Assembly: GCF_024499055.1 (NCBI RefSeq) | Contig: NZ_CP071249.1 | Location: 806,001-870,000 of the forward strand | Length of the DNA stretch: 64,000 bases | Direction: 5' to 3' | DNA from: Turicibacter bilis | Lineage (GTDB): Bacteria > Bacillota_I > Bacilli_A > MOL361 > Turicibacteraceae | In this document: piece after piece, positions 1 through 63,544 of the stretch | How positions within the stretch are numbered: the stretch's first letter is position 1 | Layout: each line of letters starts with the position of its first letter | Notes under the pieces: generated by a model | Seen by the model: only the letters and a program-made list of their open reading frames with translations | Told to the model about the DNA's origin: nothing | The model's database searches: none | Translations under genes and position numbers: made by a program

Positions 1-90
1 TTCTTCCACAATAGGTGCTCTCTTTATCGCATCTGCCCCGGTATTTGCACTATTAACTAACTCTTTTAAACTTATATAATTAAAACACAT
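1..90 (-). CDS. hsdS: HsdS, type I restriction specificity subunit (5' end only)
   Basis: The first 30 codons are visible; the gene runs off the left edge. The ATG at position 90 lies inside the last codons of hsdM (GGA TAT GTG TTT TAA), the tight overlap usual for hsdM-hsdS pairs. The visible N-terminus contains NTGADAIKRAPIV, which I recall as the opening of many type I S subunits, just before the first target-recognition domain. It would direct the M and R subunits to a bipartite DNA site. Because its partner hsdM is split by a 29-kb insertion, this subunit probably has no working methyltransferase unless it pairs with another HsdM. Confidence 0.75.
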   Translation of the reverse strand, partial: MCFNYISLKELVNSANTGADAIKRAPIVEE

Positions 91-17497: not shown

Positions 17498-17502
17498 GTT
17501 GA

Positions 17503-22048: not shown

Positions 22049-22548
22049 AGGCCATTGGTGAAGATTATGATTCACTCAAACCTTTCATGCAGGAATATCT
22101 TCAAAAAATAGAAGCCATCATTGCAGAAAAAACACAAACCAAAGAAGCCGCCATTAACACATTAAAAAGCAATTCTTTTTCTGTTTCTTCAATCTCTAAA
22201 GAATTAGGTTGTTCACGAACGACGCTATACAATCACAATCAGCTCCTAAAACGCTATATAGAGCATTCTATGGACGTTTTCGAACAAGATAACCCATTTA
22301 CCCTAAACGATGTCTTATCCGCCTCTAAGAGCCGATTACAAGAGCAAATCAACCTTATGATTGATCGAGACATCTCAATTGAGGTTCTTAAACAGGAAAA
22401 ATCAGAACTTACCAAATTACTTAAAGAAAAAAATAAAGAAATATCTCGATTACAAGCCCGTGTAAATGAACTTTCAGTTCAACTTCATCAAATTAATATT
22501 TCTGGTAAAAATAATAATGGACAAATTATTCCTATCAAAAGCAAATAA
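22015..22548 (+). CDS. TnpC-like accessory protein (DUF6262-type)
   Basis: This 177-aa protein starts at ATG 22015 inside the end of recombinase 3, after GAGGAGGTC. It has a helix-turn-helix (FSVSSISKELGCSRTTLYNH, about 60-80) and a C-terminal leucine/glutamate-rich coiled coil (about 120-165). This architecture and gene position match TnpC of Tn554, which assists transposition and orientation. A terminator follows immediately. Confidence 0.75.
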   Translation: MEIHDCIKEKIEAIGEDYDSLKPFMQEYLQKIEAIIAEKTQTKEAAINTLKSNSFSVSSISKELGCSRTTLYNHNQLLKRYIEHSMDVFEQDNPFTLNDVLSASKSRLQEQINLMIDRDISIEVLKQEKSELTKLLKEKNKEISRLQARVNELSVQLHQINISGKNNNGQIIPIKSK

Positions 22549-24065: not shown

Positions 24066-24077
24066 GCTATTTCCCCC

Positions 24078-25517: not shown

Positions 25518-25567
25518 AGCACTACCTCATTTCATTTTTTATAGCTCTATTATACAACAAAAACAAA

Positions 25568-25595
25568 CTACTATTATAGCAACAATAATAGTAGT
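25568..25595. terminator. Terminator after hsdR
   Basis: ACTACTATTAT pairs with ATAATAGTAGT, followed on the minus strand by TTTGTTTTTG, just downstream of the hsdR stop. It separates hsdR expression from hsdM-hsdS. Confidence 0.75.
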
Positions 25596-25604
25596 CTTTT
25601 AGTA

Positions 25605-28107: not shown

Positions 28108-29430
28108 TTAATAAATCGATTGAGAAATCGGAACAATGATACGAGATCGAGCAACACACACACCATTTTGGATAATATAACACTCAACAAAGTGCTTTCC
28201 TTTAAAAGTACTGTGTTCGATTTGTTTATAGGAATTAGTCCTCTCTATTTGCCCCCTTAAACAGTTTCGTTGATAAGCTACTTCTCCTTCATTTTTAACT
28301 TTCCAATAGATATCGAATGATGAAGGGTTTTCTTTTAATTCACTGTCCATCTCATCAATATAAAATTCTAATTTTTTCTGAGGTAATAGTGGTAATTTCT
28401 CTCGTAGCATCTGTTTTAATCTTCGCGTTTGAAAACCATTTTGTATCACTGTACAATCAATACTAATACTATATTTAATATCAATTGGGTATAAGTCCTC
28501 AATAAATTGTTCTGTCTGTTTCACATCAGAATAACCAAAATTACGATTTTCTTCTGTTAACTTTTTGGGGAACTTACTTCCAAATACATTCCTTAACTTA
28601 TTGTTGATAGAGGAGGAACTTTCAGTTAATTCCTTCAAAATGTCATAAGCTTCTTGAGCTTTAGTAACGAATTTTCCATTTTCACAATTATAAACTTTTT
28701 GATTACTTCCTAAAGCAAACCAATAACTCTGCTCTTGATTCAAATCTTTTAAAAAGTTGAAAAGCTCTAAAGTCATATCAAAATACTGATCAAATCCAAT
28801 ATACCAATATTGAGTGTGTTCATTTAAAAATTTATAAGTTAGAGTATCAATTAATAATCCCCCAAACTTAAATCCTTGTTTATTTTTCCACGCTCTCATC
28901 ATATTAGCAATATGCTTAAAATTTTGATTTGTTTTAGTCATCATCGAATGGCTTTCTTCCATCTCAGGTAAGGGATCAGTATATTTCCAACTCCCCCCAT
29001 CATTTGTATCAGGATATTTAAAGCGATTATCCGATTGTTTGAATCCAGGTACTAACTCAACCGTATATTTATCAAATTCAATTACTACCACTTGGCCATC
29101 ACCCGAGATATCCGTTTTAGGATAACGCTCTTTCAAAACTCGTCTAATCTCTTGAAGAAGTGAGGTTTGTTTTAATGTTTTATATGAATCAAAACGCTTA
29201 AATACTTCATCTGGCAAATCAAATAAAATATCTAAATCACTAATCCCTTTAATACACGTTCCTCTGCCTACTGAACCAACAATATACATATGAGAAGCAT
29301 CATCACCCGTTAATCCATAATACTCATTATTTAACTTTTTTGCTATTTCTCCAACCGTTGTTTCCATTTCACTCAATTTATCAGGTTCTAAAGCCTCAAT
29401 AAATACTTTAAAATCTTCTGTTAACCCCAT
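28108..29430 (-). CDS. CD-NTase (SMODS nucleotidyltransferase) with AGS-C sensor domain
   Basis: From ATG 29430 the protein is 440 aa. Residues 1-200 are a polymerase-beta-like SMODS domain: GSVGRGT (52-58), DLD (65-67), and a third acidic residue in YTVELVP (E125, where Asp is more usual). The C-terminal ~120 residues (from KYSISID through FDIYWKVKNEGE, RGQIERT to CYIIQNGVCVARSRI) match the AGS-C nucleotide sensor fused to these enzymes. It should make a cyclic oligonucleotide upon infection. The SLATT gene upstream overlaps by TAATG, the CBASS-like enzyme-effector arrangement. Confidence 0.85.
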   Translation of the reverse strand: MGLTEDFKVFIEALEPDKLSEMETTVGEIAKKLNNEYYGLTGDDASHMYIVGSVGRGTCIKGISDLDILFDLPDEVFKRFDSYKTLKQTSLLQEIRRVLKERYPKTDISGDGQVVVIEFDKYTVELVPGFKQSDNRFKYPDTNDGGSWKYTDPLPEMEESHSMMTKTNQNFKHIANMMRAWKNKQGFKFGGLLIDTLTYKFLNEHTQYWYIGFDQYFDMTLELFNFLKDLNQEQSYWFALGSNQKVYNCENGKFVTKAQEAYDILKELTESSSSINNKLRNVFGSKFPKKLTEENRNFGYSDVKQTEQFIEDLYPIDIKYSISIDCTVIQNGFQTRRLKQMLREKLPLLPQKKLEFYIDEMDSELKENPSSFDIYWKVKNEGEVAYQRNCLRGQIERTNSYKQIEHSTFKGKHFVECYIIQNGVCVARSRIIVPISQSIY

Positions 29431-30047
29431 TATCTCACATTCTCCTGCTTTAATTTTTTTGCTTCCGATGGTAGACAACTATCAATTTCTTCATCAGAGA
29501 AAGTATTATCTTTTCTCATCTTTAAACATTGTGAAGCCTGATCAACTGCTTCTTTACTGGCATCAGGTGTTCGCTTAGACAATTCCAATTTTCTATTCAG
29601 TAATTCGTCACGTTTACTTAATAACTCTTCATATGTATAACGTTCCATTCTAATATCACATAAGATTGAAACAAAATCTTCTCGAAGTTCTAACCACTCT
29701 AATTCGACTTCTTTGTGTTTTTTATGCAATGTTCCTAAATCATACTGTTTACAATACGCAGTTATAAATAAAGATACTCCAGATGCTAAAGCACTCAGTA
29801 TTTTCACACATGTTTCATCCCAGAAAACCGCTGTTATAATCCCCGATGTGGATAATACTGATGCAATAATTTGAATAAGTTCACACATATTCTTTCGCCA
29901 CAGATAGATATCTCCCTGTTGTGCTTGAATCTTATGTGTCCATACCACACTCATAAATACCTGTCTTAAATGACTTTCTATTACATTGATTCTTGTAATG
30001 ATGCCCACTCCCTTTTCATGCTTAATCTTTATTTTGGTTTTCTCCAT
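29430..30047 (-). CDS. SLATT-domain 2TM effector
   Basis: The 205-aa protein has two transmembrane helices (about 50-70 and 78-100; IIASVLSTSGIITAVFW, ILSALASGVSLFITAY) and a long helical C-terminus with the SLATT signature YTYEELLSKRDELLNRKLEL ... TPDASKEA. SLATT proteins are predicted pore-forming effectors activated by nucleotide second messengers. It is first in the two-gene unit with the CD-NTase. No clear ribosome binding site precedes ATG 30047, so the true start may be a little downstream. Confidence 0.8.
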   Translation of the reverse strand: MEKTKIKIKHEKGVGIITRINVIESHLRQVFMSVVWTHKIQAQQGDIYLWRKNMCELIQIIASVLSTSGIITAVFWDETCVKILSALASGVSLFITAYCKQYDLGTLHKKHKEVELEWLELREDFVSILCDIRMERYTYEELLSKRDELLNRKLELSKRTPDASKEAVDQASQCLKMRKDNTFSDEEIDSCLPSEAKKLKQENVR

Positions 30048-33633: not shown

Positions 33634-34956
33634 TTATCCTAATATTTCTTGTAATTGATGCTGGATTATCATCAACTGTTTATTTAATTTTTCATGTTCA
33701 GCTTTTAAAGCCTCTACATCAAACTTCTCTTGTTTTACTTTTGGTGTGACATAGCGTTCCACCATTAAGTTATAACGGTTTTCTTGAACTTGTTCTAAAG
33801 ATACTAACTTAGATACTTCTTGTCGTTCTTCACGAGTATGATATAGTTGTCCGATTTCCTTGATCGATTGCTCTAACAATGTATTTAACGTACGATTTTT
33901 CTCAACAAATGACGTTGCGTTCATAAAGAAAATATCATTTGTTTTCTTTTGTTTATCAAAGATAACAATATTAACGGGTAACGCCGTTCCATATAGCATA
34001 TTCCCAGGCAAAGAAATAACCGTTTCAACTAAATTTTCTTCGATTAATTGTTTTCGAATGTCTCCTTCACGTGATTCTCGGAATAAAACACCTGATGGTA
34101 CAATCATCACTGCTTTTCCCGTCTCATTTAAGCTTTCAACAACTTGTGTTATGAAAGCAAAGTCTGCACTTGATCGTGGTGGAACCCCACGGTGAAAACG
34201 AGCATCATCCATCACCTGCTCCATTCCCCAGTCCTTTAATCCAAATGGTGGCTGACAAACGATGCAATCAAACTTTTGAAGCGTTGTTCCTTCTACATGC
34301 TTAGGATCAATCAATGTATGTCCCTCTTTTAAATAAGCCAATTCGTGAATACGTCCTGTTAAAGTCAGTAACATTCTGCATTGATTTAAGGCTTGACGAT
34401 TGATTTCTTGACCATAAATGAGCACATCTTGATGACCTTGACTCACTTCATAAGCTAAACTCCCTGAGCCAATTGCCGGATCATATAGTGTTTCAAATGA
34501 AGTATTAGTTAATAACTCCTTTGATAACAAAGCAAGCGATGCTGGCGTTTCAAAACTAAAACGATCTTGTAAACTTAAATAAAATGAACATTTTTGAAAT
34601 ACTTCTATAGAAGATTGTTCAAACGAAACCGAATTTAAAAAATCAATGACTTGTTTAAAAAGTTTATCATTATCTAAACGGTCAATATCGGAGAAGCTAT
34701 CTTGTAACCAATTCAGTTCAGCATTTTGATCAATAAATGACTTTAAGGACTGAATCATCTCATCCTTACAAGTTGCTTCTTTCAAATCAAAACACCCTTG
34801 TAGTTGTGATGTGAATACTTCATTTTCCTCCAATAATTCTCTTTCTAATTGATGAAGAAAAGTAAATGTTCGAATGAGTTGACCAGCAGAGCTTGAATCA
34901 AAACTTCCTCTTAATAAATCACTGAATTTGTATGCATAATTTTGAATGTTCTTCAT
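33634..34956 (-). CDS. HsdM-like DNA methyltransferase with altered motif IV (QPPF)
   Basis: The 440-aa protein has an HsdM-type N-domain, motif I as DPAIGSGSLAYE (about 159-170) and motif IV as CIVCQPPFGLKDWG (about 232-245). The first residue of motif IV, normally N, D or S, is Q235, and motif I lacks the usual ACGSGG. The fold is kept, but activity may be altered or lost. The half-size HsdS ends 12 bp upstream, and a strong promoter drives both; no matching hsdR is seen nearby. Confidence 0.8.
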   Translation of the reverse strand: MKNIQNYAYKFSDLLRGSFDSSSAGQLIRTFTFLHQLERELLEENEVFTSQLQGCFDLKEATCKDEMIQSLKSFIDQNAELNWLQDSFSDIDRLDNDKLFKQVIDFLNSVSFEQSSIEVFQKCSFYLSLQDRFSFETPASLALLSKELLTNTSFETLYDPAIGSGSLAYEVSQGHQDVLIYGQEINRQALNQCRMLLTLTGRIHELAYLKEGHTLIDPKHVEGTTLQKFDCIVCQPPFGLKDWGMEQVMDDARFHRGVPPRSSADFAFITQVVESLNETGKAVMIVPSGVLFRESREGDIRKQLIEENLVETVISLPGNMLYGTALPVNIVIFDKQKKTNDIFFMNATSFVEKNRTLNTLLEQSIKEIGQLYHTREERQEVSKLVSLEQVQENRYNLMVERYVTPKVKQEKFDVEALKAEHEKLNKQLMIIQHQLQEILG

Positions 34957-34967
34957 TTTTCCATCCC

Positions 34968-35522
34968 CTATCCTAGTAAATTTTGTAAATACGCCTTAAA
35001 TTGTTTTTCACGATTTTGAATTAGCTGTTCCATCACTGCTCTTTCATCTTTCAGCAATTGATAAGCTTTTGCTACTTCACGTTGTTTTTCAATCGTGGGG
35101 AGTTTCACATCTAATTCCTCTAACGTCGATAGCCGAATCATCGGCACCGTTACCCCTTGAGCATTTATTTTAAAATATGATTGGGCAAAATCTGAATTCA
35201 AATACATAGCTAAATAAGCTGGATCAACTTGATTTACATTATTCACCGTTAACACTAAGAAGTGAGAAGTTGCAACCGTATCAGCTAAGTCCTCTTCAAT
35301 AAGAGCTGCTGAATTCTCTGCACATTTCGCTTTAAAAATAATATCATTCTTCTTTAGAAAGAAACGCTCATTCACATTTTGAGATTCAAACTCGGTTAAC
35401 TGATCAAATAAAATAATTCCTTCCTTAGTTACATCCTTTAACTTAATCTGCTTATAAGTCTTTCCTTCAGAAGATCTTCCTTGAAAACCACTTTTTACTC
35501 TACATAAATCTGATAACTTCAT
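34968..35522 (-). CDS. Half-size HsdS-like specificity protein (single TRD)
   Basis: At 184 aa this has one target-recognition domain followed by one helical spacer (TIEKQREVAKAYQLLKDERA), half of a normal HsdS. Half-S proteins can work as head-to-tail dimers recognising palindromic bipartite sites. It is the first gene of the pair with the HsdM-like protein (12 bp apart). The start at 35522 follows GGAGGAA and a near-consensus promoter at 35,582-35,610. Confidence 0.8.
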   Translation of the reverse strand: MKLSDLCRVKSGFQGRSSEGKTYKQIKLKDVTKEGIILFDQLTEFESQNVNERFFLKKNDIIFKAKCAENSAALIEEDLADTVATSHFLVLTVNNVNQVDPAYLAMYLNSDFAQSYFKINAQGVTVPMIRLSTLEELDVKLPTIEKQREVAKAYQLLKDERAVMEQLIQNREKQFKAYLQNLLG

Positions 35523-35732: not shown

Positions 35733-36668
35733 CTAATATATTCTATATTGGTTCATTTTTTTATATATTAACTTTTTATTTTTTTGATTATAAATGACTT
35801 CTCCATTATTAATTTTTTCATTTAAATTTTCTATATATATTATTTTAGGATTACTCATTAAATTTTCGACGATATATAAATCTAACTTTTCATTATATCG
35901 ACTATATTGTTGAAATTCATTGGTAACAATTGAAACTTGATCCTCATTCGCTAATCGTACCATTTGATAGTGTCCTGATTCTGTATGGTAAAGCTGTATA
36001 AATGGATGATTAGCTGGACTAGTAATTCTTCTTACTAAATTTGATTTTTCTTTTTTCTCCAATAATTGAATTAATTCAATGGCAATTTCTAATTGCTCTA
36101 TTTCTTCTGTAGATATTGAACCTACAGAATTCGTTGACAATAATTCTTGCTCATCTTCCTCAAGATTATTTTGTTTTACGTCTTTTTGAATAGCATCATT
36201 ATCTGGCTGTAGATCCCAATAGTCTTGTAAAGTTCTCAACTGCTTGAGTAGTCGTAGCGTTTCTAAATTCCTAATAATGTTCTCACGTTCACGTAAGGTC
36301 GGAGTTAAAACATTTCCTAACAAGATTGAATACGTCTCTTGTAAGGCAGAATTTCTAATCATCTGTTCAAAAAGCCTTTCTATACAAGTGACAAAAACTC
36401 TGTCTTTACTAATAGATTTACCGGATACTTCAAAATGTTTTTTCATTCGTTCAAAAATGATCTCATACATCTTATAAACTAATAATTCTTTTGTTTTATA
36501 ATTGACTTTAATCTCACCAATAATTTCTTTCATATATCTAGATCCATCTACAGTATCATCCACCGTAAAACACTTTGCTTGTTCATCAAATTGAATAGTT
36601 GGCAAATAAATTGTAAATATACTACTTATATCTAAAAACCATTCCTCATAAAGTACCTTTCCATTCAC
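35733..36668 (-). CDS. Unknown 312-aa protein
   Basis: I choose GTG 36668, five bases after GGAGAGAG; a longer frame has no ribosome binding site. No family is recognised. The N-terminal half is helical; an acidic stretch (NNLEEDEQELLSTN, about 190-205) precedes a helix and a beta-rich end. It is divergent from the HelD-like helicase, with 113 bp between starts. That suggests shared control and possibly a shared role. Confidence 0.55.
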   Translation of the reverse strand: MNGKVLYEEWFLDISSIFTIYLPTIQFDEQAKCFTVDDTVDGSRYMKEIIGEIKVNYKTKELLVYKMYEIIFERMKKHFEVSGKSISKDRVFVTCIERLFEQMIRNSALQETYSILLGNVLTPTLRERENIIRNLETLRLLKQLRTLQDYWDLQPDNDAIQKDVKQNNLEEDEQELLSTNSVGSISTEEIEQLEIAIELIQLLEKKEKSNLVRRITSPANHPFIQLYHTESGHYQMVRLANEDQVSIVTNEFQQYSRYNEKLDLYIVENLMSNPKIIYIENLNEKINNGEVIYNQKNKKLIYKKMNQYRIY

Positions 36669-36781
36669 ATTTCTCTCTCCCTTTTCTATCCTCTGGTTGT
36701 TTTTTACAGAATATTGTATAATTTTATCATAACAAATCATTTCTTGAATGAAAAGAGTAGAAAATATTGGGGGCAAATCAC

Positions 36782-39514
36782 ATGCAAATCGGTAATTCAG
36801 TCTATACGATGGAAAATGGGAAACGAAAAGTTGGTACCATCACCTCTATCATTGATTCTAACTATTATATTATAAAGTTTCCTAATAAAGCGACAGACAT
36901 TAGCGTCCATAAGGATAAATTTGGCGTAAGCTATTTTTTATATGAGGGGGCGCCCCTTCCAGCAGAAAATTTAAATCAATCTTCTACTAAATTATATTTC
37001 AAATCGGCAGAGGAAGAAGAGCAACACTATGCGAATCAAATTATTGAACATTTTGGTTATGAGATTGAGGAGTTAAAAAATATTTATTTTCAGCGAAACA
37101 ATAAATATCAAATTGAAGCTTTTGAATCTGCTGAAAGTATTAAACGTAAAAGTAAGTTATACGAAAAAATTATGAATGATCCATTTAAATATCATCTCTT
37201 CTACGAGATAAAAGGGCAACCCAACAGTGTTCGGCTAGGAGCCTACGATGTTCATATTACTGAAGAGCAAATAGTACACTCTGTTAACTCACCACTTTAT
37301 GGTCAACTACTTATGCAGAATCGTCTAGCTGCTAGTCAAATCTTAATCGGAAACGATAAATACTTTATTCAAAAACGTCGAGATATTCATTTTAATAGCA
37401 GTACTAAGAAAATTACTAATCTAAATGAAGTAGAATTTAGTAGAGAGATGTCTCAAATGACTACTGAAAATATGGACAAATATTTAATTGATTCCCTATC
37501 AGAAGATGAACTTTACCAAACACGACTAAAAACGAATAGTTCAGAATTACAAGAAATTTTCTGGACCATGACCGGAACTCAACATCAAATTGTACGAGAA
37601 GATGTGAATACTCCACTCTTCATTCAAGGAGGAGCTGGAACTGGAAAAACTTCCGTCGGGATTCATCGTATCTCATATCTTCTATATAATAAATTGATTC
37701 ATGAAGCAATTGCTTTAGGGCCAAATGAACATTTTGCACACTACATTGAAGATTCTTTAGCTAATATGGGGATTGAAAGTCACCAAAAAGTACAAACACT
37801 ATCCCGCCTTAATTTCTATATCAATTATTTAGATCAAATTAACCAATATGTAACCACACTTACAACTAGAATTAATGATCAACTCGATTTATTAAACCTA
37901 GACCAATTACAATTGAACAATCATCTAACAGCCGACGAATACAAATTATCTCCAGTTTCAAGTACAGTCAAATCAATGACACAGACGATTATCAATTCTG
38001 TTCCATGGAATCAACTAAAAAGCGAAGTAAAAAAATTAAAAAACCTTTTTCAATTAAATCTTATAGATGAATTCAACAATTTCGAAACGTTTCTTTCTTC
38101 TTTTACATCGGTACTTGAAAAGTTTAGTGAAAGCATAGAATATAGACAACTTCAAGACAGTATTAAAGAAAAGGAAAATCTTTTAGAAGAATTAGCGATT
38201 ATCATTAATAAAAAACAAAATGAAATCTATAACCTTAAACTGTTAACTAACGACCTTCAAATTCAACACGACCTTGTTTTGACACAAGTAAATGAAATAG
38301 AAGAGCACCACTTACCAATCAAGCAAACTTATGAAACGTATAAACAGCAGCTTGAGGAAACAGTTACATTTCACGAACAACTCCTTAATCAGATTGATAG
38401 TGATCATGAGTACCAAAATCAAGTCAACCTTTCTCTTAAACTAAAAGAAACAACGCAAGCATTTCTTGATTATATAAGTGATGACTACAATAAAGGTGAA
38501 AAAAAATACAATCAACTATTGGAAAAATACATTACATTACATGACGAATTAGAAATATCCGAATCTCGTTTATCTGAGTTATCAAAAGAAATCAAACAAT
38601 TAGTAAGAACACAAACGTCTACTAAATTCAATTATCAAAACGATCAGCAACGATTTAAACAACTTCAAAATAAAGTGAATTTTAATGATAAAAAAGTTGA
38701 ACAAATCAACACTACTATTAATACTATTGTACAACTATTAAATAACCTCACACCCAATCATTTAATAAGCACTGAAGCAGATAACATCCTACTTTGGATT
38801 CATTATTACTTTACACTTTATCCAAACACCTCGGAATTTTATAAAGATACTTATTTCTTTATTGATGAAGCACAAGATATTCCTGCGTTTGAATTCGTCT
38901 TATTCCATGCTATTAATTCACAACGTGTCCTATTTGTAGGGGACGTTAATCAAAATATCTTTGGTTATAACAATTTTAGAAGTTGGGAAAAACATTGTCA
39001 GTTATATAAAGCAAAATTCTATGAGTTACAATATAATTGGCGTTCAACAAAACCAATTGTCAAAGAAGCACAACAATATATCATTAACTACGACTATAAA
39101 AATTTAGGCGTTGTTTCAGGCTATCCAATTAAGCAACAAATGATTTCCTCTTTAAAAGAATTAACAACACTAATCAATGACAATTGGATTCAAGAAAAAG
39201 TCAAATTCCTTCCTTCAAACAAATCATGTGCCATCATTGCCCTTAATAAAGTTCAATTTACACTTCTTCAAATCCTATTAAAATCACAAATTGAACGTGG
39301 ACTAATTGATATATTCGATGGAAACAGAACAATCAAACCACAAAAACTAACACTAACCTCAATTGATTACGTTAAAGGCCTTGAATTCTTTAGTACAATC
39401 ATCCCACTTCCCCACACAGATAATTTTGATCAGTTCGAAAAAGCACGGGTCTATACTGCTCTAACCCGTGCAACAGATGATTTAACTGTATTCTTAATAG
39501 ATGAACAAAAATAA
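36782..39514 (+). CDS. HelD-like superfamily 1 (UvrD/Rep-type) helicase
   Basis: From ATG 36782 (after GGGGG) the protein has 910 residues. Walker A GGAGTGKTSVGIHRISYLLY (about 283-302) matches the HelD/helicase IV class, and motif II is FFIDEAQD (about 691-698); motif VI-like YTALTRAT is near the C-terminus. Between motifs I and II sits ~390 residues with a long coiled coil (about 455-640). HelD uses ATP to remove RNA polymerase from DNA. This protein is much longer than HelD (about 775 aa) and lies inside a defence-like cluster, so a phage-related role is inferred. Confidence 0.78.
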   Translation: MQIGNSVYTMENGKRKVGTITSIIDSNYYIIKFPNKATDISVHKDKFGVSYFLYEGAPLPAENLNQSSTKLYFKSAEEEEQHYANQIIEHFGYEIEELKNIYFQRNNKYQIEAFESAESIKRKSKLYEKIMNDPFKYHLFYEIKGQPNSVRLGAYDVHITEEQIVHSVNSPLYGQLLMQNRLAASQILIGNDKYFIQKRRDIHFNSSTKKITNLNEVEFSREMSQMTTENMDKYLIDSLSEDELYQTRLKTNSSELQEIFWTMTGTQHQIVREDVNTPLFIQGGAGTGKTSVGIHRISYLLYNKLIHEAIALGPNEHFAHYIEDSLANMGIESHQKVQTLSRLNFYINYLDQINQYVTTLTTRINDQLDLLNLDQLQLNNHLTADEYKLSPVSSTVKSMTQTIINSVPWNQLKSEVKKLKNLFQLNLIDEFNNFETFLSSFTSVLEKFSESIEYRQLQDSIKEKENLLEELAIIINKKQNEIYNLKLLTNDLQIQHDLVLTQVNEIEEHHLPIKQTYETYKQQLEETVTFHEQLLNQIDSDHEYQNQVNLSLKLKETTQAFLDYISDDYNKGEKKYNQLLEKYITLHDELEISESRLSELSKEIKQLVRTQTSTKFNYQNDQQRFKQLQNKVNFNDKKVEQINTTINTIVQLLNNLTPNHLISTEADNILLWIHYYFTLYPNTSEFYKDTYFFIDEAQDIPAFEFVLFHAINSQRVLFVGDVNQNIFGYNNFRSWEKHCQLYKAKFYELQYNWRSTKPIVKEAQQYIINYDYKNLGVVSGYPIKQQMISSLKELTTLINDNWIQEKVKFLPSNKSCAIIALNKVQFTLLQILLKSQIERGLIDIFDGNRTIKPQKLTLTSIDYVKGLEFFSTIIPLPHTDNFDQFEKARVYTALTRATDDLTVFLIDEQK

Positions 39515-39598: not shown

Positions 39599-39624
39599 AA
39601 AGATAGCATAATTTGCTATCTTTT
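39599..39624. terminator. Terminator between convergent genes
   Basis: AAAGATAGCA pairs with TGCTATCTTT and is followed by TT. It lies beside the stop of the 150-aa gene and can serve both strands. Confidence 0.75.
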
Positions 39625-39632: not shown

Positions 39633-40085
39633 TTAAAATGGAACAGTTGTTGCTTGATCATTAATATACATTAAAACATCTACATCATAATCGGTATATG
39701 TTTCATCTAAATAATGACCATCAAAACGGGATTTAAACACAGACTCTACCAAAATACTCATTCCACCTTCAGCATAAAACTGAATTTTCTTACGAGCCAT
39801 TGAAATAAACCCTGGATCACTAAATGCTTCTAAGTCTCGCCCAAGTTCATTATCACATAACACCATCGTGTAAAATGATACTTTTTGCTTCGTATTAAAG
39901 TAGTTCGTACGGAACTCACGTCCTTTTTTAGTGAACGCTTCTAAACGATTATTTTTAAATCCAATTGTTGCACATAATAAGAAAAATTCATGATATTTAA
40001 TTCCATATGCTTCATTAAAGTGGAAATAAATATTTTCATATCTTTGGCTAGAATATAGTAACGCTTGCTCTTGTAAAAAATCCAT
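39633..40085 (-). CDS. Unknown 150-aa protein coupled to the DndD-like ATPase
   Basis: No family is recognised. It is a mixed alpha/beta protein with aromatic-rich N-terminus (NEAYGIKYHEFFLLCATIGF). It starts 6 bp after the ATPase stop with its ribosome binding site (GGGGG) overlapping that end, so the pair is made together. In position it recalls DndE after DndD and the small middle components of ABC three-component systems, but I see no sequence match to either. Confidence 0.6.
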   Translation of the reverse strand: MDFLQEQALLYSSQRYENIYFHFNEAYGIKYHEFFLLCATIGFKNNRLEAFTKKGREFRTNYFNTKQKVSFYTMVLCDNELGRDLEAFSDPGFISMARKKIQFYAEGGMSILVESVFKSRFDGHYLDETYTDYDVDVLMYINDQATTVPF

Positions 40086-40091: not shown

Positions 40092-42113
40092 TTACCCCCT
40101 TGTCGACATCGTGGCATTCAGACTAAGTTCAACAATTTGTGAATGACCTTTTGAAATTTGTTCTAGTTTATACCATCGTCCTAATTTTTTAGTTTCTTTA
40201 AATTTCTCTTCTTCTACACGCGATAATTCTGTATCTGTTAAAAGAAGAATCCATTGTGATGTTAAACCAGGGATATTTTCAATTAGATGATCTCGGTTAT
40301 TTCCACTAATACGTCCAAATGGGGTATCCATAAACAATGGGAAATCGATAGTGACTTCATCTCCAGCAGCTACCTTAGCTAAAGCCGTGATAAATGATAA
40401 AGCAACAACCTGTCGTTGCCCCTGAGAAATATCTTGGGTAATATTAATATTATCCCACCCCATTAACTCAATTTCATATTTCTCATTAATCTCAATCTTA
40501 TTTATTAAATCAACATCCTTTTTATCAATTAACTTTTTGAAAATTTTTGTTGTTTCAGCTGTTAATTTAGAACGCATATCCACACTATACTCATTAAAAA
40601 TTTGATCTAATTTTTCTTTCAATTTAGAAATATGCTCTAACATTTTGTACTCTACTTTTAAGCTCTCATTTTCACGTAATAAGTTGTTAAATTCTTTTTC
40701 TAATTCGTGAATATCTTTTTGTGTTTGATCTACTTGTAAGTTTAATAAATTGATATTCTGTTCCAATTTACTTAACTCATGCTGTTTTTGTTTTAAATCT
40801 TGTTCACATTTCTTTAAATCTTCTTGTCCTTGTGCTTTTTCACTTATCTCTTGATTTAAAACTTCAATCTTATATTCAATCTCTTGCTGTTCACTTTTAA
40901 GCTGTTTATACTTAGTTATCTTCTCTGCTAAAATTTGAAGTGATTCTTGTTCTTGTATTGAAAAATCATGCATAACAGAAGTCATTTGAGAAATAACTGG
41001 AGTTAATTCTGTACGTTTATAATTACTCTTTAATTCTTCAATGACTTCTAAAGCTTTCGATCCTATTTCAAGAGGTGTTTGACAACATGCACATAGTTTA
41101 TCTTGTAATGATTTTTCAATAATTTGAATTGAAATTAAATCTTCTTGCTTTATTACAAGTTGGTCCAGATAAGTCTTAGCAGACATAAAATAATCTTTTA
41201 GCATGACTTGATGGCTACTATTCACTAATTCTCTTCTAAGAATCTGCTTTACTTCTTCAAGAGTATTTTGTGTTAATTGCTGTTTAAGTTTCTCAGTCTT
41301 ACATTTATCTTGTAAATCCTTCACATCTTTATTTAAACTAAGAAAATCTTCTAGTTTCTCAATAACTTGCTTACACTGATTTTTACTTTTCTCTGTTTCA
41401 GTAATCTCAATTTTTAATTGTTTCAACTTTTCTTTTGCTTGATCAATTTTATTTTCTTTTGTTGTTAGATCAAGATTTTGAGCAGATGATAAAATTCTCT
41501 TTCGTTCTGTTGTATACATTTTAGATAAAATATTGATGGCCATTTCTAATTTATCAATATCTAATAATTTGACAATCCCTGTCTTTACTTCTTCTTTTAC
41601 AGAGGCATCTGTCTTAGTTAAAGTATCAATCTTCTCTGCATCAAATAAGAAGAAATCTTTAATCTTTTCATCAATAATATTATTAATTTCCTGACTAACT
41701 TCTAACTCATCTTTTGTAACTTTTAACACATTTCCATCATAAGCAATAGTTAAACTTACCAAACCAGTTTTCTCTTGGATTTTCGAATCTCTTTTTAATC
41801 CTTTTAAACTACGTGATAATGTATATTGTTTTCCCTTATGCTCGAACTCAACTTCAACTAAGGCTTCCACAGGTAGTCCTAATTGTTCTTCGAGTTTTAA
41901 CAGATTGACCAAATGTATAGTTTCTTTAGGATCATCTTGTTGGAGATGTGTGCTTCCAAATAAACAATACATCAACGCTCTAAAAATCCCTGTCTTCCCT
42001 TTTCCATTTTCTCCAAAAATAATTGTTATATTTTCATTATCTTGCGCAAATATAATTTGCTGTTCCCCATAAAATTGGCGGAAATTTTTTATTCTCATTT
42101 GTTGTAATTTCAT
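40092..42113 (-). CDS. DndD/Rad50-like SMC-type ATPase with zinc hook
   Basis: The 673-aa protein has Walker A FGENGKGKTGIFRAL (about 33-47), two long coiled-coil arms (about 200-330 and 370-520) around a CACC zinc hook (about 340-343), the signature DISQGQRQVVALSF (about 558-571) and Walker B FPLFMDTPFG (about 592-601). This is the layout of DndD and Rad50-type ATPases that clamp DNA in repair or defence. DndA-C/E genes are absent, so it is not an ordinary phosphorothioation locus. Its start is flush with the 55-aa gene upstream (TAGATG). Confidence 0.8.
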   Translation of the reverse strand: MKLQQMRIKNFRQFYGEQQIIFAQDNENITIIFGENGKGKTGIFRALMYCLFGSTHLQQDDPKETIHLVNLLKLEEQLGLPVEALVEVEFEHKGKQYTLSRSLKGLKRDSKIQEKTGLVSLTIAYDGNVLKVTKDELEVSQEINNIIDEKIKDFFLFDAEKIDTLTKTDASVKEEVKTGIVKLLDIDKLEMAINILSKMYTTERKRILSSAQNLDLTTKENKIDQAKEKLKQLKIEITETEKSKNQCKQVIEKLEDFLSLNKDVKDLQDKCKTEKLKQQLTQNTLEEVKQILRRELVNSSHQVMLKDYFMSAKTYLDQLVIKQEDLISIQIIEKSLQDKLCACCQTPLEIGSKALEVIEELKSNYKRTELTPVISQMTSVMHDFSIQEQESLQILAEKITKYKQLKSEQQEIEYKIEVLNQEISEKAQGQEDLKKCEQDLKQKQHELSKLEQNINLLNLQVDQTQKDIHELEKEFNNLLRENESLKVEYKMLEHISKLKEKLDQIFNEYSVDMRSKLTAETTKIFKKLIDKKDVDLINKIEINEKYEIELMGWDNINITQDISQGQRQVVALSFITALAKVAAGDEVTIDFPLFMDTPFGRISGNNRDHLIENIPGLTSQWILLLTDTELSRVEEEKFKETKKLGRWYKLEQISKGHSQIVELSLNATMSTRG

Positions 42114-42281
42114 CTATTCTAACTCCTCTGAAATAAGCTGTTTTATTTCTTGTTTTAAATCCTCTATAATTTGAGTTTGAGTTTTATTTCCCTTTGAAAC
42201 CTGTACAAGCAAATAATTTGCTAAATATGCATAATCTTGAGGTAACTTCTTTATTTTTTGATGTAAGTCTTCATTAATCAC
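42114..42281 (-). CDS. Unknown 55-aa protein upstream of the ATPase
   Basis: A GTG start at 42281, behind AGAGGATGAG, opens a 55-codon frame whose TAG touches the ATPase ATG. The product is helical and charged (MINEDLHQKIKKLPQDYAYL at the start; IIEDLKQEIKQLISEELE at the end). Tight spacing on both sides argues that it is a real, small subunit or adaptor of the ATPase. Confidence 0.6.
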   Translation of the reverse strand: MINEDLHQKIKKLPQDYAYLANYLLVQVSKGNKTQTQIIEDLKQEIKQLISEELE

Positions 42282-42317: not shown

Positions 42318-45300
42318 TTAAGTTAATTTAACATTTCCTAGTTCATCAATTTTTATTTTTTGACTCATTTTTATTTCATATGGAAAGACTTTTTCTCCTC
42401 CATCTTTTATGCGTAACAATCCTTTTGCAATAAGATAATCACAAATATCATACATATGCATATTTCCTTTATACTCATTATTTAGAACATCTATAATTAA
42501 ATCTTCATATGTTTCAATTAAAGAATTTGATTTCACAATAATAACAGGATCGTATCTCCAATCTGAATATATTTTATTTATTGCTTTAAATCCAAACTTA
42601 ATCGCAATACTTTTTAGTAAATGAGGTGTCCATTGATATTCAATAATTGGAAGACTTCTTCGATATCCTATCAGTTTGGATAAACTCATATACGTACTAT
42701 CGTGCATTACTTCTTTTAAGTAGTCTACAACAATCTTTTCATCTTCCACACACATTGAATAATAATCACTTGAAATCAATTCATCACGACTCAATTCAAC
42801 TAATTTATATGATTCAATAAGATTATTAATCATCCTCCCATATCGTTGCTCTGAATAACCGAATCGATTGAGTAATTCTTTTAACTGTATTCGAGTTGTC
42901 GGTTGTGATAATGTATGACAGATATATTCTTCAATATTTTTAAAAGGACTTTCTTCATTGTATAGGAAGTTGGCATGACCTTTAATTTTTGGATTTAAGA
43001 CTTTAATATAGTTTGCTAAATTAATTGGATCATTTAGCTCCTTCTCTTGTGTAAAAATCGTAGCAATATTTGAATCAAAAGACATTTCATCGATAATCAT
43101 ATTTGCGGAAGTGTATCCTAAACTCATACAATTTGAAACAAGTTCATTGATGTAACTACTTTGTTCCTCAGTAATTTTTAAATCTGTGATTAATCGGATT
43201 TTATCACGGCTCCATAAAAGGATTTCCGGACTATCTGCCACACGCTGAACTACTCGATATTCTGGCCACTTTAATTCATTCATTAGAAACTCTTTGTCAA
43301 TACATCCTCCAGCTTGCTTTACATAATTAACTAGCAATGAATTAATAGTATTCTTTGATTGTTCATTTTTAAAAATCATTAATGAATTTCTAGATCCAAT
43401 TTTATATTCAGAATCAAAGAAATAACGAATAATTGAATATAGATGTAATTTATTATGGATACTGTAGCGTGCAACACGATCACTAAACTGATCAAATATT
43501 TGATCAGCATTAATATGACCATGTACTTCAAGTATTTGATCAATAAATACTTTTATTTCTCTTAACAAACTATCTTCAAACTTACCATCGAACCATGAAA
43601 ATGTTAATGAATCAACTAAGATAATATTTCGACTATCACGAATACGTGCTTCTATACTTCGATCAGCACCTTCTAAATCAAAGTTTAAATATAATTTCGA
43701 CAATCTTCTTAATTCGCTTATTCCTTGTTCGTCACAACGAATTGATTGACTTATCTTGTATTTAAATAAATACTCTAATGCTGTTAACTGATATAGGCGG
43801 AATCGAGAACACAATTCTCCATATCTTCTTATTTTATAATAAGTTAATAACTTTTCAATTAATTCTTCAGATGGTCCTTTAATCCCGAGTAATTCAAAAA
43901 CATCTTCAAACTCTGGTAAATATTCATAATAACGGAAACTATCAGGTAATTGTTCAAAATACTCATCAATAAATGAAGCATCTAAGTGATTCTTATTACA
44001 ATAAAATAGATCTAATGGTTCATAATAATGAATTATATCGTTTCCTTCTTTTAATACTGAAATAATATATTGATTTTCATTCGTTAATCTATTCTGTAAT
44101 TCAAGCTTTGAAATATACCTCTTTCCTTTAGTCTCCATGAAAATAGCTAAAAGAAAATCATTTTTTACTAGATATCCTCTAATTTTTTGGACTACTTTAA
44201 CTAAAACTTGTCGAATACGTTCACGTGAGACATCCATTTGATCTCCAACTTCTTGCAATGTCAAACCTTCTTTGTAACGTAACAATAAGAATTCATATTC
44301 ACGTTCTTTTAAGATACCTTGAATTCCACTTACAATTGAATTTAACGATCGAATACTATCTATTTTATCCATTAATTTAATAAGTTTAAACGGATCATAT
44401 TTTGCTTTTAAATCAAGTAGTTTCTCCCCGTTAATATCCTTAAGCTTGGTAGATTTCTCTTCAACTTCACCTAAAGAAAACACATCAAAAATCTCAGTGA
44501 CAGATAAATCTAATAAAAATTCACCCTCTTCTTTAATAACTAACGCTTTGTCTAAATATTTATTTATATCGTCAATTGCATATGACTTTAAGGCTATCAT
44601 AATTTTTTGAAATTTGGCTTTTCCAACACCTTTTTGCTGTGAGTATTGACTTAAAAACTTTGAATCTAAGTCACTTATTATTTCTTTTCCATGGCCTTTA
44701 CAAAATTCTCTGAAATGAAGATAGGTCCTTTCCGCGAAAATATCTTCAATCAACACATCTCCAACATAAGTAATTTCACAGCTCGTTATTTTATTAATTG
44801 AATCTGGATTAACATCTAAACATTGATCCATAAGGAACTGTATCAATTGCTCAAATTTTCCAATACCCACTCCAGGGGATTTTAGAAAATTCACTAAATG
44901 TTGTTTAGTTAATTGATATAAAACAGTAATTTGATTAGTATTGCAATACCTTTTAATTGCATTAAATTTATTTTCATTGAACAATATATCAACACTTATA
45001 TTCTTTAGTTCATCAGGATATACGAAAGAAATTGGAAGTTGTAAATTCGTTCGTATACCAAGCATGTCTTCGACTTCAATAACTATTATTTCTTCATCAC
45101 AAAGAGAGGTACTTGCTTTTCGTTGAATTTCTTCTTTATAACACGAATTACTTCTTACTACTGGTAAACCCAACTCTTTTATTTGTTCAGTATTTATAAA
45201 TTTAAAACCGTTCTTTTCAAACTCGTTTTTTAAACCGAGAATATTAAGGTTTGCATTTAAGCAAGTAAATTGCTCAATTGCAATATAATTAAAAAATTTA

Positions 45301-45650
45301 TCCGATTTTATATTGAACCTTTCATTCAAACGGGATAGACCATATTGATCAAATGGAATCTTTAAAAAGTTCATTTCATTACTTTCACAAAAAATTACTT
45401 GTGTTGGTTCAACTAAAACTTCATGAAATAAATTTGTGGCTTTTTGAGTTTCTACACGATATCCTCTTAATCCAAGTTCATCTATTAATCTCATAAATAG
45501 TTTTCTATCACTGACATAATACTCTCTTAATTTTTCTAACTTAAAACAAGTTGGATCAGTATCATCTCTAATTAAAACAGTACTTAATAAATCACTAACA
45601 TTATCTTCAATATTTAATAAATATTTTGGTTTTCTAATACAATCACTCAT
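42318..45650 (-). CDS. 1110-aa protein with alphaCTD-like HhH segments and sigma region-4 helix-turn-helix
   Basis: Seen in sequence: two helix-hairpin-helix segments resembling the RNA polymerase alpha C-terminal domain (about 240-275, LVNFLKSPGVGIGKFEQLIQ; about 330-355, YSQQKGVGKAKFQKIMIALK), then a canonical sigma-70 region-4 helix-turn-helix (about 448-492, REYEFLLLRYKEGLTLQEVG, then MDVSRERIRQVL). The remaining ~600 residues look helical, possibly repeated winged-helix modules, and are unrecognised. No catalytic motif is seen. It heads the minus-strand operon with the 55-aa protein, DndD-like ATPase and 150-aa protein. A DNA- or promoter-recognising role is inferred. Confidence 0.65.
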   Translation of the reverse strand: MSDCIRKPKYLLNIEDNVSDLLSTVLIRDDTDPTCFKLEKLREYYVSDRKLFMRLIDELGLRGYRVETQKATNLFHEVLVEPTQVIFCESNEMNFLKIPFDQYGLSRLNERFNIKSDKFFNYIAIEQFTCLNANLNILGLKNEFEKNGFKFINTEQIKELGLPVVRSNSCYKEEIQRKASTSLCDEEIIVIEVEDMLGIRTNLQLPISFVYPDELKNISVDILFNENKFNAIKRYCNTNQITVLYQLTKQHLVNFLKSPGVGIGKFEQLIQFLMDQCLDVNPDSINKITSCEITYVGDVLIEDIFAERTYLHFREFCKGHGKEIISDLDSKFLSQYSQQKGVGKAKFQKIMIALKSYAIDDINKYLDKALVIKEEGEFLLDLSVTEIFDVFSLGEVEEKSTKLKDINGEKLLDLKAKYDPFKLIKLMDKIDSIRSLNSIVSGIQGILKEREYEFLLLRYKEGLTLQEVGDQMDVSRERIRQVLVKVVQKIRGYLVKNDFLLAIFMETKGKRYISKLELQNRLTNENQYIISVLKEGNDIIHYYEPLDLFYCNKNHLDASFIDEYFEQLPDSFRYYEYLPEFEDVFELLGIKGPSEELIEKLLTYYKIRRYGELCSRFRLYQLTALEYLFKYKISQSIRCDEQGISELRRLSKLYLNFDLEGADRSIEARIRDSRNIILVDSLTFSWFDGKFEDSLLREIKVFIDQILEVHGHINADQIFDQFSDRVARYSIHNKLHLYSIIRYFFDSEYKIGSRNSLMIFKNEQSKNTINSLLVNYVKQAGGCIDKEFLMNELKWPEYRVVQRVADSPEILLWSRDKIRLITDLKITEEQSSYINELVSNCMSLGYTSANMIIDEMSFDSNIATIFTQEKELNDPINLANYIKVLNPKIKGHANFLYNEESPFKNIEEYICHTLSQPTTRIQLKELLNRFGYSEQRYGRMINNLIESYKLVELSRDELISSDYYSMCVEDEKIVVDYLKEVMHDSTYMSLSKLIGYRRSLPIIEYQWTPHLLKSIAIKFGFKAINKIYSDWRYDPVIIVKSNSLIETYEDLIIDVLNNEYKGNMHMYDICDYLIAKGLLRIKDGGEKVFPYEIKMSQKIKIDELGNVKLT

Positions 45651-45751
45651 TGAATGTCATCTCCCTAGAATCATACTTCTAAATTCATTCTAATTCATTC
45701 AACAAAAAAATTCAATTTATTACATTGCTATACAAACTGGTAATTAAAATA

Positions 45752-46031: not shown

Positions 46032-46911
46032 TTATTCTCTTAATTTCTCTAGACTTTTTCCCTCTTTATTTTTCCATTCTTTCCATCCATTTGTAGCTCC
46101 TAAATAGATAAGATCGGATGCTCCTGAGGGGCTATTAAAGATGTGAGTTTGATTAAATTGATAGTATCCATCAATTTCTTGTAACACTCCTTGTTTCTTT
46201 AAGCGTTCTAAGTTTGTAGCTGCACTTATCTCTTTAAAACTATTTGCCGCTTTTTCAATAGAAGCTGTTTTTGAACCTTTTAAAACAACAAACTTTTTTC
46301 CTTCTCCGAGCAGATAGCCTTTGGCGTCTGCTCCTTTTTGGGTCATATAAAATGTTTCTTTTTCAAGTTCATCAAGTTGCTGCTGTAGATGATTAATTTT
46401 CTCTTTTGTTTCATTGACTTCTAATTGAAGATCGACTTTTTTGAATGGAAAGAGATTAAACGCTCCCCCTAAAATAAATTCAATCGTTTTAAACATGTCC
46501 ATCAGTTCACTTTGACGAATGTCATGAACATGACTTTCTTTTGGAATACTTGCATTTTCTAATTTATAACGACCCGCTTCTTTAATTGCTTGATAAATTT
46601 TAGACTCTAAAAACTTAACATCCGCTTTATTCAGGTTATGGGTATTACTAAAGAAGAAATAAGCATAATCCCAAAACTCTTTTTTCTTATCATGATTCAG
46701 TAAGCGTATTGCTGCTTCTTCTGTTTCTCCCACATAAATGAGATCTCCTTGTTCCTCATCACTTCCTATTAATAAATAAACAGCGACATAATCAGATTTA
46801 AACGTTGAGACTTTGTGTCTTGGAACATACTCACAACGAATACTTTACCGATGCAGTCTTTTTTCCATCGATTTCTTCATCATTTAATAATATTTGTAAG
46901 GCAATACTCAT
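46032..46911 (-). pseudogene. GIY-YIG nuclease family protein with DUF4357-like tail, frameshifted
   Basis: ATG 46911 follows GAGG and encodes MSIALQILLNDEEIDGKK, then TASVKYSL and a stop (TGA near 46,833). In the next frame the protein resumes as RCEYVPRHKVSTFKSDYVAV, YLLIGSDEEQGDLIYVGETE and continues to 46,032. YLLIG...IYVGET is the GIY-YIG core. One small indel thus separates a normal start from the remainder. A shorter product from an internal GTG would lack the first catalytic strand. The family's cellular role is unclear; some act on DNA. Confidence 0.8.
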
Positions 46912-47180: not shown

Positions 47181-47397
47181 TTACATACCTAATTCACTTC
47201 TTAATGTTTTAATTACTTCTACTGATAGCTCTGTTGTTTCTAAAATAAAATCATCATCACAACCACGTTTAATTAACTTTTGAGCGAAGCGAATACGCTC
47301 TTCATTTCTCGCCTCCTCACGGTTCTTTTCATCACGCTCAAGTAAAGTCATATATTCTACCTCCGTTCGTTTACCTTCTGAACTTAAATTTCTTCTA
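47181..47397 (-). pseudogene. Tandem partial copy of the Rpn-type nuclease gene (3' end)
   Basis: Directly after the stop of the intact gene, about 70 codons repeat its C-terminus: RTEVEYMTLLERDEKNREEA, GCDDDFILETTELSVEVIKT, versus RTEVEYMTLLERDERNREEG and DEFVFETTNLSLDEIKK in the intact gene. An ATG at 47351 behind GGAGG could express a 56-aa tail. Divergence between copies shows the duplication is not recent. Confidence 0.75.
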
Positions 47398-48213
47398 TTA
47401 ATTAAGCTCCAATTCCTGTCTTAATTTCTTAATCTCATCCAGAGATAAGTTAGTTGTTTCAAAAACAAATTCATCGTCCAAACCTCTTTGAAGTAAATTT
47501 TTAGCAACAGAGCGCCTTTCCTCATTTCTACCCTCTTCACGATTTCTTTCATCACGCTCAAGTAATGTCATATATTCTACCTCCGTTCGTTTATCTTCTT
47601 TGATTGATTGTACTTTCTCATTAATTTTATGAACCAATTGACTTTTAGATTCAGACGCTACTTTGTCAGTTGAGTTCTTAATATAAGCTAAAAATTCTAA
47701 CATTTCCTGATCAACATCATCAAGTATCCCACACGTTGTCAAAAATACTTTAGTCGTTTCATCACCTAGAACTAACCTCGGATCCTCATTACATCGATTT
47801 TCAAAGGTATATAAATGTCTGCCTTGTTTAAATGGATCAAAAGTCGTACAAATAAAGATGATGAAACATTTTCGTAACTCATTGTATTTCTTCCCCTTCG
47901 TTATCATATTAATATCAATATTCCCTTGATAATAGCGGCTTCTTTTAGGAAGATTGGTATCTGTTCCCTTTTGCATCTCGATATTGTACACTGTATTTTG
48001 ATCATCATTTACATAGATGTCGAGTCTAACTCCCTTATTTTCAGCAAGAATATTAATAACCTTTTGTTCTTCTGGCATTTTTACTTCTTTAATTTCAATG
48101 TTCAATATTTTTTCTAAAACTATTTTACAAATAGACTCATCGGTCATGACTTTTGCAAATAAAAAGTCATCCTCTAAATTTAATTCTTTAACTGATTTAA
48201 CACCTGATTTCAC
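47398..48213 (-). CDS. Rpn-family PD-(D/E)xK nuclease / putative transposase
   Basis: A GTG start after GAAGGAGTATCC gives 271 aa. The N-terminus (LNLEDDFLFAKVMTDESICK) and the nuclease core (RLDIYVNDDQNTVYNIEMQK, with D and E-x-Q of the PDDEXK_2 family) identify the recombination-promoting nuclease/transposase-like group. The C-terminus is the rapidly varying tail duplicated downstream. E. coli Rpn proteins promote RecA-independent recombination. Many copies per genome are common in this group of bacteria. Confidence 0.8.
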   Translation of the reverse strand: MKSGVKSVKELNLEDDFLFAKVMTDESICKIVLEKILNIEIKEVKMPEEQKVINILAENKGVRLDIYVNDDQNTVYNIEMQKGTDTNLPKRSRYYQGNIDINMITKGKKYNELRKCFIIFICTTFDPFKQGRHLYTFENRCNEDPRLVLGDETTKVFLTTCGILDDVDQEMLEFLAYIKNSTDKVASESKSQLVHKINEKVQSIKEDKRTEVEYMTLLERDERNREEGRNEERRSVAKNLLQRGLDDEFVFETTNLSLDEIKKLRQELELN

Positions 48214-63303: not shown

Positions 63304-63544
63304 TATTACCAATTTATGTAATTTCCGATAATTACATACTCCAATTCATCTCTGAATTTACAATAAAATCAGATTTAGAAACGTTCAAAATTAAAATCGT
63401 ACTTAGGGTTTAAACAGTTAAATAATCCTTTAGCCTTCATTATGGTCCGTTCACACACCTCTCTTAGCCAAAATATCTATTTCTCCTGATAAAAGCATCT
63501 CATTAGGATAAACTAAATTTAGATTAATACTGGGAGTGATTGAA

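What the first reader, a model, noticed from the sequence alone, without database searches (positions are those of the whole stretch)
42318..45650. 1110-aa protein combining alphaCTD-like HhH segments with a sigma region-4 helix-turn-helix
Two G-x-G-centred HhH segments and a textbook R-E-R-I-R-Q-V sigma-4 helix occur in one chain, i.e. both promoter-contact modules of RNA polymerase. It heads an operon with a DNA-clamping ATPase, not with transcription genes. This suggests recognition of promoter-like or transcribed DNA in defence, or control of RNA polymerase.
Basis: partly seen in the sequence, partly recalled or inferred. Interest (0 to 1): 0.6.

Follow-up and report, generated by a model that had tools for sequence, protein, structure and literature searches.

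The report
Promoter-reader-like protein in antiviral operon
A large bacterial protein made almost only of DNA-binding modules, including copies of the two that RNA polymerase uses to recognise promoters, proves to be a conserved but apparently undescribed extra gene of a known family of antiviral operons, where it may replace the chemical DNA marking normally used to tell self from invader.

Summary
The 1110-aa protein (42318-45650, minus strand) carries two alphaCTD-like HhH repeats and one housekeeping-type sigma region 4, but no sigma region 2. In the models most of the rest is a chain of winged helices; no catalytic domain was recognised.

The operon is identifiable: pbeB-, pbeC- (CxC/DndD-type ABC ATPase; PADLOC PbeC, E=7e-238) and pbeD-like genes follow. 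This is the core of the PbeABCD / "CxC-DndE" antiviral systems. PbeA (HKD nuclease + SF2 helicase) and dndC are missing from this genome.

In all 18 Bacillota relatives found through PbeC, and in plasmid systems of Lactiplantibacillus, Ruegeria, Pontibrevibacter and Rhizobium, a related sigma-4 protein lies directly upstream of pbeA. It diverges in step with PbeC (r=0.97).

Pbe loci without it all have sulfur-modification or methyltransferase genes adjacent (17/17); loci with it mostly do not (3/24).

Best reading: the DNA-reading subunit of a modification-independent Pbe variant. Specific recognition of -35 promoter DNA is possible but unproven; control of RNA polymerase is not supported. No readable paper describes this gene as a Pbe component.

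The parts
42318..45650 (-). sigma-4/HhH/winged-helix protein, 1110 aa, first gene of the operon
   Evidence: orthologues directly upstream of pbeA in 18 Bacillota loci
45171..45650 (-). N-terminal region, residues 1-160, with a conserved LR-lY ... DEL-lRG motif; fold not assigned
   Evidence: family alignment; model pLDDT 41-85
44814..44981 (-). alphaCTD-like HhH repeat 1, residues 224-279
44577..44741 (-). alphaCTD-like HhH repeat 2, residues 304-358
44148..44351 (-). sigma-70 region 4, residues 434-501
   Evidence: Pfam 1.5e-12; VIA-align to -35-bound Taq sigma-A region 4, 1ku7: Z 7.2, 2.2 A, 69 residues, 30% identity
44205..44225 (-). recognition-helix motif RERIRQV, residues 476-482
   Evidence: sequence; most conserved HTH positions of the family
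42321..44129 (-). chain of winged-helix-like units, residues 508-1110
   Evidence: secondary structure of the AF2 model; matches to tandem winged helices of UFL1 and SelB
42114..42281 (-). pbeB-like small protein, 55 aa, GTG start, ends next to the pbeC start
   Evidence: phmmer to L110-L118 PbeB-position ORFs 9e-9 to 5e-10
40092..42113 (-). PbeC, CxC-type ABC ATPase, 673 aa
   Evidence: PADLOC PbeC 6.8e-238; Walker A and hook cysteines conserved
41082..41093 (-). zinc-hook motif CACC of PbeC (residues 341-344)
   Evidence: C341 and C344 invariant in Bacillota PbeC
39633..40085 (-). PbeD-like protein, 150 aa
   Evidence: family profile matches archaeal and other PbeD at 97% probability
39599..39623 (.). 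terminator-like hairpin just after the operon
   Evidence: pattern scan, listed on the + strand; not evidence of function
45687..45715 (-). promoter-like site TTGAAT-17-TAGAAT upstream of the sigma-4 gene
   Evidence: such sites are not more frequent than in shuffles

Best explanation
The protein is the DNA-reading subunit of a variant of the PbeABCD / CxC-DndE antiviral system. Shown by sequence: it is a recurrent gene directly upstream of pbeA (upstream of pbeB here, where pbeA is missing), translationally close to it, and it diverges in step with PbeC. Shown by profiles and models: apart from an N-terminal region of unassigned fold it consists of DNA-binding-type folds (HhH repeats of variable number, a -35-type sigma-4 helix-turn-helix, a chain of winged helices); no enzyme was recognised. 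Inferred: it works with the PbeC-PbeD ATPase pair and supplies target recognition in systems that have no self-marking modification, so that the complex is loaded on, and blocks, invading DNA. PbeA adds helicase and nuclease action where present but is partly or wholly lost in several lineages, including this one. Least certain is what the protein reads; promoter-like -35/UP DNA is the most specific candidate.
For: Partners: PbeC 6.8e-238, PbeD profile match 97%, PbeB-like ORF. Conserved order: 18 of 18 Bacillota loci found by a PbeC query, not by the sigma protein, have it upstream of pbeA, with gaps of -29 to +9 bp; also plasmids of Lactiplantibacillus, Ruegeria, Pontibrevibacter, Rhizobium. 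Distance matrices sigma-PbeC r=0.974, sigma-PbeD 0.938, PbeC-PbeD 0.965, none of 5000 permutations reaches them. Modification genes adjacent in 17/17 loci without it and 3/24 with it; dndC absent from the window genome and 16 of 16 tested sigma+ Bacillota genomes, present in all 4 archaeal sigma- genomes. HKD domain of PbeA lost in L110, L122-L124, L126, L127 and L. plantarum, whole PbeA lost here, sigma gene retained. Recognition-helix conservation. A relative heads two candidate defence loci of another type, PDC-M33.
Against: No activity data exist for any sigma+ system. Three sigma+ loci do have phosphorothioation genes, so replacement is not strict. The sigma+ Bacillota loci are one PbeC clade, so presence and absence are not independent events (family-collapsed Fisher p=7e-4, with rough family assignment). 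The window copy lacks PbeA and could be a remnant. More distant PbeC loci mostly lack the gene (12 of 13).
Confidence: 0.55

Rival explanations
1. Structural scaffold: the winged-helix chain acts like the tandem winged-helix (KITE-type) partners of SMC-like ATPases, and the HhH and sigma-4 units merely hold DNA without sequence preference.
For: Long winged-helix chain beside a Rad50-like ATPase. HhH copy number varies from 1 to 5 among relatives, as expected of non-specific grip. At the position of the alphaCTD UP-element residue R265 the two window repeats have N and R (alignment by eye).
Against: The sigma-4 helix-turn-helix is the most conserved stretch of the protein (mean 2.44 bits against 1.3-2.0 elsewhere), at positions that contact bases in sigma-A.
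Confidence: 0.22
2. Operon regulator: it controls transcription of the pbe genes, binding a -35-like site in its own promoter.
For: It is the first gene, has DNA-binding domains throughout, and a TTGAAT-17-TAGAAT site lies upstream.
Against: Size of 0.9-1.9 kb of coding aa (915-1900 residues) with a long conserved C-terminal array is out of proportion for a repressor; a tight one-to-one divergence with PbeC fits a complex subunit; the promoter-like site is not above chance.
Confidence: 0.12
3. RNA polymerase-directed effector: the alphaCTD- and sigma-like modules bind RNA polymerase and shut off or redirect transcription during infection.
For: Fold and sequence resemblance to the two promoter-contact modules of the polymerase.
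Against: No region 2. Sigma4/beta-flap chimeras (7kug_D, 8d5v_D) align over 88 of 94-96 residues to model 434-541, against 69 for sigma-4 alone (1ku7), which suggests that the beta-flap groove is occupied by the protein's own following segment (inference from ranges, Z about 8).
Confidence: 0.06
4. The window copy is a decaying remnant: loss of pbeA left a silent operon.
For: PbeA has no orthologue in the genome; the nearest hits are type I/III-like helicases. No other sampled locus lacks pbeA altogether.
Against: All four remaining ORFs are intact, with a clean 36-bp junction between the sigma gene and pbeB and conserved motifs. In the haloarchaeal system pbeA deletion leaves weak protection (PMC6459918).
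Confidence: 0.2

Closest known systems
PbeABCD (Xiong et al. 2019, PMC6459918)
   Same: PbeB, PbeC, PbeD counterparts in the same order; blocks viral DNA replication without detectable cleavage
   Different: Known system is four genes, needs DndCDEA phosphorothioation; here a fifth, sigma-4 gene is added, PbeA is lost in the window, and no dndC exists in the genome
CxC ABC-ATPase/DndE-centred systems (Rakesh et al. 2024, PMC10853773)
   Same: CxC ATPase, clade-2 DndE (PbeD), small disordered protein, HKD-SF2 helicase
   Different: The main text lists methylases, MTaX1 and nucleases as partners but no sigma-4/HhH protein; its only sigma domain is an insert in some DndH proteins. Supplement and the 2020 precursor paper could not be read
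MzaA of the MZA system (NCBIfam NF041931)
   Same: large protein with a sigma-4 domain in a defence operon
   Different: similarity confined to sigma-4 (31 bits against a cut-off of 800); partners differ
PDC-M33A/B candidate defence system (PADLOC)
   Same: in L187 and L190 a sigma-4 relative is the first gene of the run
   Different: different downstream genes; the sigma gene is not among the two PDC-M33 proteins the PADLOC names imply
RNA polymerase alphaCTD and sigma-A region 4
   Same: folds; sigma recognition helix near-identical to the host RpoD
   Different: not attached to sigma region 2 or to RpoA; alphaCTD DNA-contact residues not kept as a set

Membership tests
PbeABCD / CxC-DndE antiviral system | PbeC: DndD-related ABC ATPase with zinc-hook cysteines | tested here: met
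   PADLOC PbeC 6.8e-238; CACC hook and Walker A
PbeABCD / CxC-DndE antiviral system | PbeD (DndE cognate) | tested here: met
   profile match to other PbeD 97%. Relation to canonical DndE not detectable by sequence here (2.7%)
PbeABCD / CxC-DndE antiviral system | PbeB small protein between PbeA and PbeC | tested here: met
   55-aa ORF at the expected place, similar to relatives'; short, so evidence is modest
PbeABCD / CxC-DndE antiviral system | PbeA, HKD nuclease fused to SF2 helicase | tested here: not met
   absent from the window and its genome; present or reduced to the helicase in relatives. So the window locus is filed as a PbeA-less derivative, not as a PbeABCD system
PbeABCD / CxC-DndE antiviral system | partner phosphorothioation genes (dndC) | tested here: not met
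   no dndC in the genome
PbeABCD / CxC-DndE antiviral system | protects against virus | not testable with these tools
   needs a plaque assay
sigma-70 factor | region 4 with -35 recognition helix | tested here: met
sigma-70 factor | region 2 (-10 and core binding) | tested here: not met
   only the region-4 end of sigma models matches
RpoA alphaCTD-like domain | alphaCTD fold and sequence profile | tested here: inconclusive
   profile 90% against shuffles at most 3.5%; structural Z 7.1 tied with RAD51 and SAM-like HhH domains
MzaA (MZA system) | full-length MzaA match and MZA partner genes | tested here: not met
   31 bits against 800; no MZA partner among the neighbours scanned

The most novel reading that the evidence does not exclude
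A modification-independent antiviral system in which a protein carrying alphaCTD-like and sigma-4 modules reads promoter-type DNA (-35/UP-like) on the invader and loads a Rad50-like clamp there, i.e. defence guided by promoter recognition instead of DNA modification.
Probability: 0.22. Interest if true: 0.88.

Novelty: new variant of a known kind. Interest (0 to 1): 0.62.

Why it matters
About 58% of catalogued PbeAC pairs lacked nearby dnd genes in the original survey (PMC6459918: 320 of 553) and it was unclear how such solitary systems could work without a self mark. The sigma-4/HhH protein is a candidate answer: it occupies loci that have no modification module and is missing where one is present. 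It gives a directly testable five-gene unit, and a possible case of the cell's promoter-reading modules being reused to find foreign DNA. Defence-finding tools do not have a model for this gene, so the systems are annotated incompletely.

Tried and rejected
Single-sequence scan of genome contigs with the sigma protein: nothing; solved by searching with PbeC. Viral contigs with sigma alignments gave only ordinary sigma-4 hits or nothing; a PbeC scan of viral contigs gave 3 weak ATPase hits; phage records gave none. L040 was dropped from the counts: its PbeC hit sits in a canonical dndC-D-E-A run. First alphaCTD comparison used wrong-strand sequences and was redone. True sigma factor: rejected, no region 2. 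MzaA membership: rejected. The whole-model structure search is dominated by sigma-4 and single winged helices, so it does not exclude other folds elsewhere. A methyltransferase screen by motif found unlinked or more distant MTases in 5 or so sigma+ loci (L042, L115, L119, L122, L125); none is directly adjacent, the nearest being L119 about 1.5 kb downstream.

Full report
1. The observation. The ORF is real and lies on the minus strand. Sigma region 4 is unambiguous (Pfam 1.5e-12; 18 of 19 relatives; closest solved sequences are RpoD/SigA). Its recognition helix (VSRERIRQV) is close to that of the host's own RpoD (VTRERIRQI). Numbering by the 1ku7 alignment puts R476, E477 and Q481 at Taq sigma-A R409, E410 and Q414; that these contact the -35 element is from my own knowledge of that structure. 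The helix-turn-helix (464-492) has mean column information 2.44 bits; all other sections of the protein lie between 1.26 and 1.99. The HhH segments are repeats. Iterated searches find 2 in the window, 2-5 in close relatives and 1 in some distant ones. A repeat profile matches RpoA alphaCTD (90% against at most 3.5% in 200 shuffles), and a separate model of the region matches alphaCTD structures over 62 residues at 2.3 A. Z is only 7.1 and other HhH/SAM-like folds tie, so 'alphaCTD-like' rests on the sequence profile plus the fold together.

2. The rest of the protein. The AF2 model (19 sequences, mean pLDDT 78.7, pTM 0.41) shows after sigma-4 a long succession of helix-helix-strand-strand units. 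Structural matches are winged helices and tandem winged helices (UFL1, SelB, ESCRT-II). About nine units can be counted from the secondary structure; the count is mine. No enzyme family matched in Pfam, NCBIfam or PADLOC.

3. The operon. Downstream, same strand: a 55-aa ORF (42114-42281), a 673-aa ATPase (40092-42113) and a 150-aa protein (39633-40085). The ATPase is PbeC by PADLOC (6.8e-238). [quoted passage not shown] The 150-aa family matches other PbeD profiles at 97%. PbeA is not in the genome: the best PbeA-model hits are a type I HsdR-like protein inside the window and generic helicases.

4. Recurrence. A scan of genome contigs with a PbeC alignment, blind to the sigma gene, gave 23 loci. 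All 18 Bacillota loci with readable upstream sequence have the sigma protein directly upstream of pbeA, gap -29 to +9 bp. The four archaeal loci do not. In plasmid records the gene sits in the same place in L. plantarum, Ruegeria, Pontibrevibacter and Rhizobium NXC14, where the Rhizobium small protein is annotated 'CxC ATPase DNA modification system associated small protein'. Among 13 more distant PbeC-like loci one has it. The sigma, PbeC and PbeD distance matrices correlate at 0.94-0.97 (17 operons). This shows joint inheritance; it does not prove physical contact.

5. Loss of PbeA. Full PbeA keeps the HKD residues (HEKFG...D and GSxNET). The HKD half is missing in Neobacillus (L110), in Lactobacillales, in Lagierella and in the L. 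plantarum plasmids, and the whole gene in the window, while the sigma gene, pbeB, pbeC and pbeD stay. Xiong et al. reported that SNJ1 DNA is not cleaved and that deleting pbeA leaves weak protection (PMC6459918). Together this makes the nuclease look dispensable and the sigma protein with PbeBCD the core of this branch (inference).

6. Modification genes. In the 17 pbe loci without the sigma gene, phosphorothioation-type genes (dndC, cysteine desulfurase, or a DUF4007 + ~1140-aa ATPase set) or a methyltransferase adjoin the operon. In 24 sigma+ loci with usable flanks, three do (G078, Ruegeria, Pontibrevibacter). Fisher p=7.5e-9 by locus, 7e-4 when collapsed to rough families. Genome-wide, dndC is absent in the window genome and in 16 of 16 sigma+ Bacillota genomes and present in all 4 archaeal genomes. 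Limits: relatedness among loci, methyltransferase detection by three queries plus a motif screen, and flanks of 10 kb at most.

7. Mechanism. Steps shown: gene association, domain content, loss pattern. Steps inferred: complex with PbeC-PbeD; target recognition by the sigma protein; block of invader DNA. The promoter-specific version rests on the conserved recognition helix and on the pairing of sigma-4 with alphaCTD-like units, the two modules that bind -35 and UP DNA side by side in the polymerase. Against polymerase control: no region 2, and sigma4/beta-flap chimeras align through model residue 541 (88 residues against 69 for sigma-4 alone), which suggests an occupied docking groove.

8. 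Wider family. A profile of the C-terminal array alone finds relatives in 9 other genomes of 392. In two of them a sigma-4 protein precedes PDC-M33A, a candidate defence protein, which supports the idea of a movable front-end module.

9. Known or new. Neither the PbeABCD paper nor the main text of the 2024 reappraisal describes this gene as a component; a 2025 review adds nothing; NCBI names it generically 'sigma factor-like helix-turn-helix DNA-binding protein'; PADLOC has no specific model. The reappraisal's supplement and its 2020 precursor were not readable, so prior notice there cannot be excluded. I file it as a new variant of a known kind.

Noticed in passing
window 28108-30047 (-): Nucleotidyltransferase of CBASS type followed by a small two-helix membrane-like protein, by eye a CBASS-like pair
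   Followed up: no
window 60661-63312 (-): 883-aa protein with a SIR2-like N-terminus, typical of NAD-depleting defence proteins, by eye
   Followed up: no
window 36767-39514 (+) and 35733-36776 (-): HelD/GajB-like SF1 helicase (NCBIfam HelD 8e-21, PADLOC GajB 5e-19) with an unassigned 347-aa neighbour on the other strand
   Followed up: partly
window 46032-46733 (-): PDC-S14 / DUF4357 candidate defence protein next to the sigma-4 gene (PADLOC 2e-53)
   Followed up: partly
window 22590-27938 (-), 33634-35522 (-), 80-970 (-): Type I restriction-modification genes and further HsdM/HsdS-like pieces: the window is a defence island
   Followed up: no
window 16139-22548 (+): Three consecutive recombinase-like genes plus a small protein, a likely mobile-element integration module
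   Followed up: no
window 47181-48213 (-): Rpn-type PD-(D/E)XK recombination-promoting nuclease and a second fragment of its C-terminal end
   Followed up: no
L187 5910-14140, L190 6291-13577: Sigma-4 relative heads a run with PDC-M33A (and PDC-M33B in L187), followed by a CD-NTase cyclase in L187 and a D12-class methyltransferase in L190
   Followed up: partly
L029-L032, L034, L045: Pbe operons without the sigma gene joined to a DUF4007 + ~1140-aa ATPase + cysteine desulfurase (PAPS reductase in L045) set, possibly a distinct sulfur-modification module
   Followed up: partly
L011 9950-14757 (Cetobacterium plasmid): 611-aa sigma-4/HhH relative outside any pbe operon, next to a UvrD-type helicase
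   Followed up: partly
L127 2766-8468 (Ligilactobacillus): 1900-aa version of the sigma-4 protein with about 500 extra residues in the HhH region, too divergent for the repeat profile
   Followed up: no
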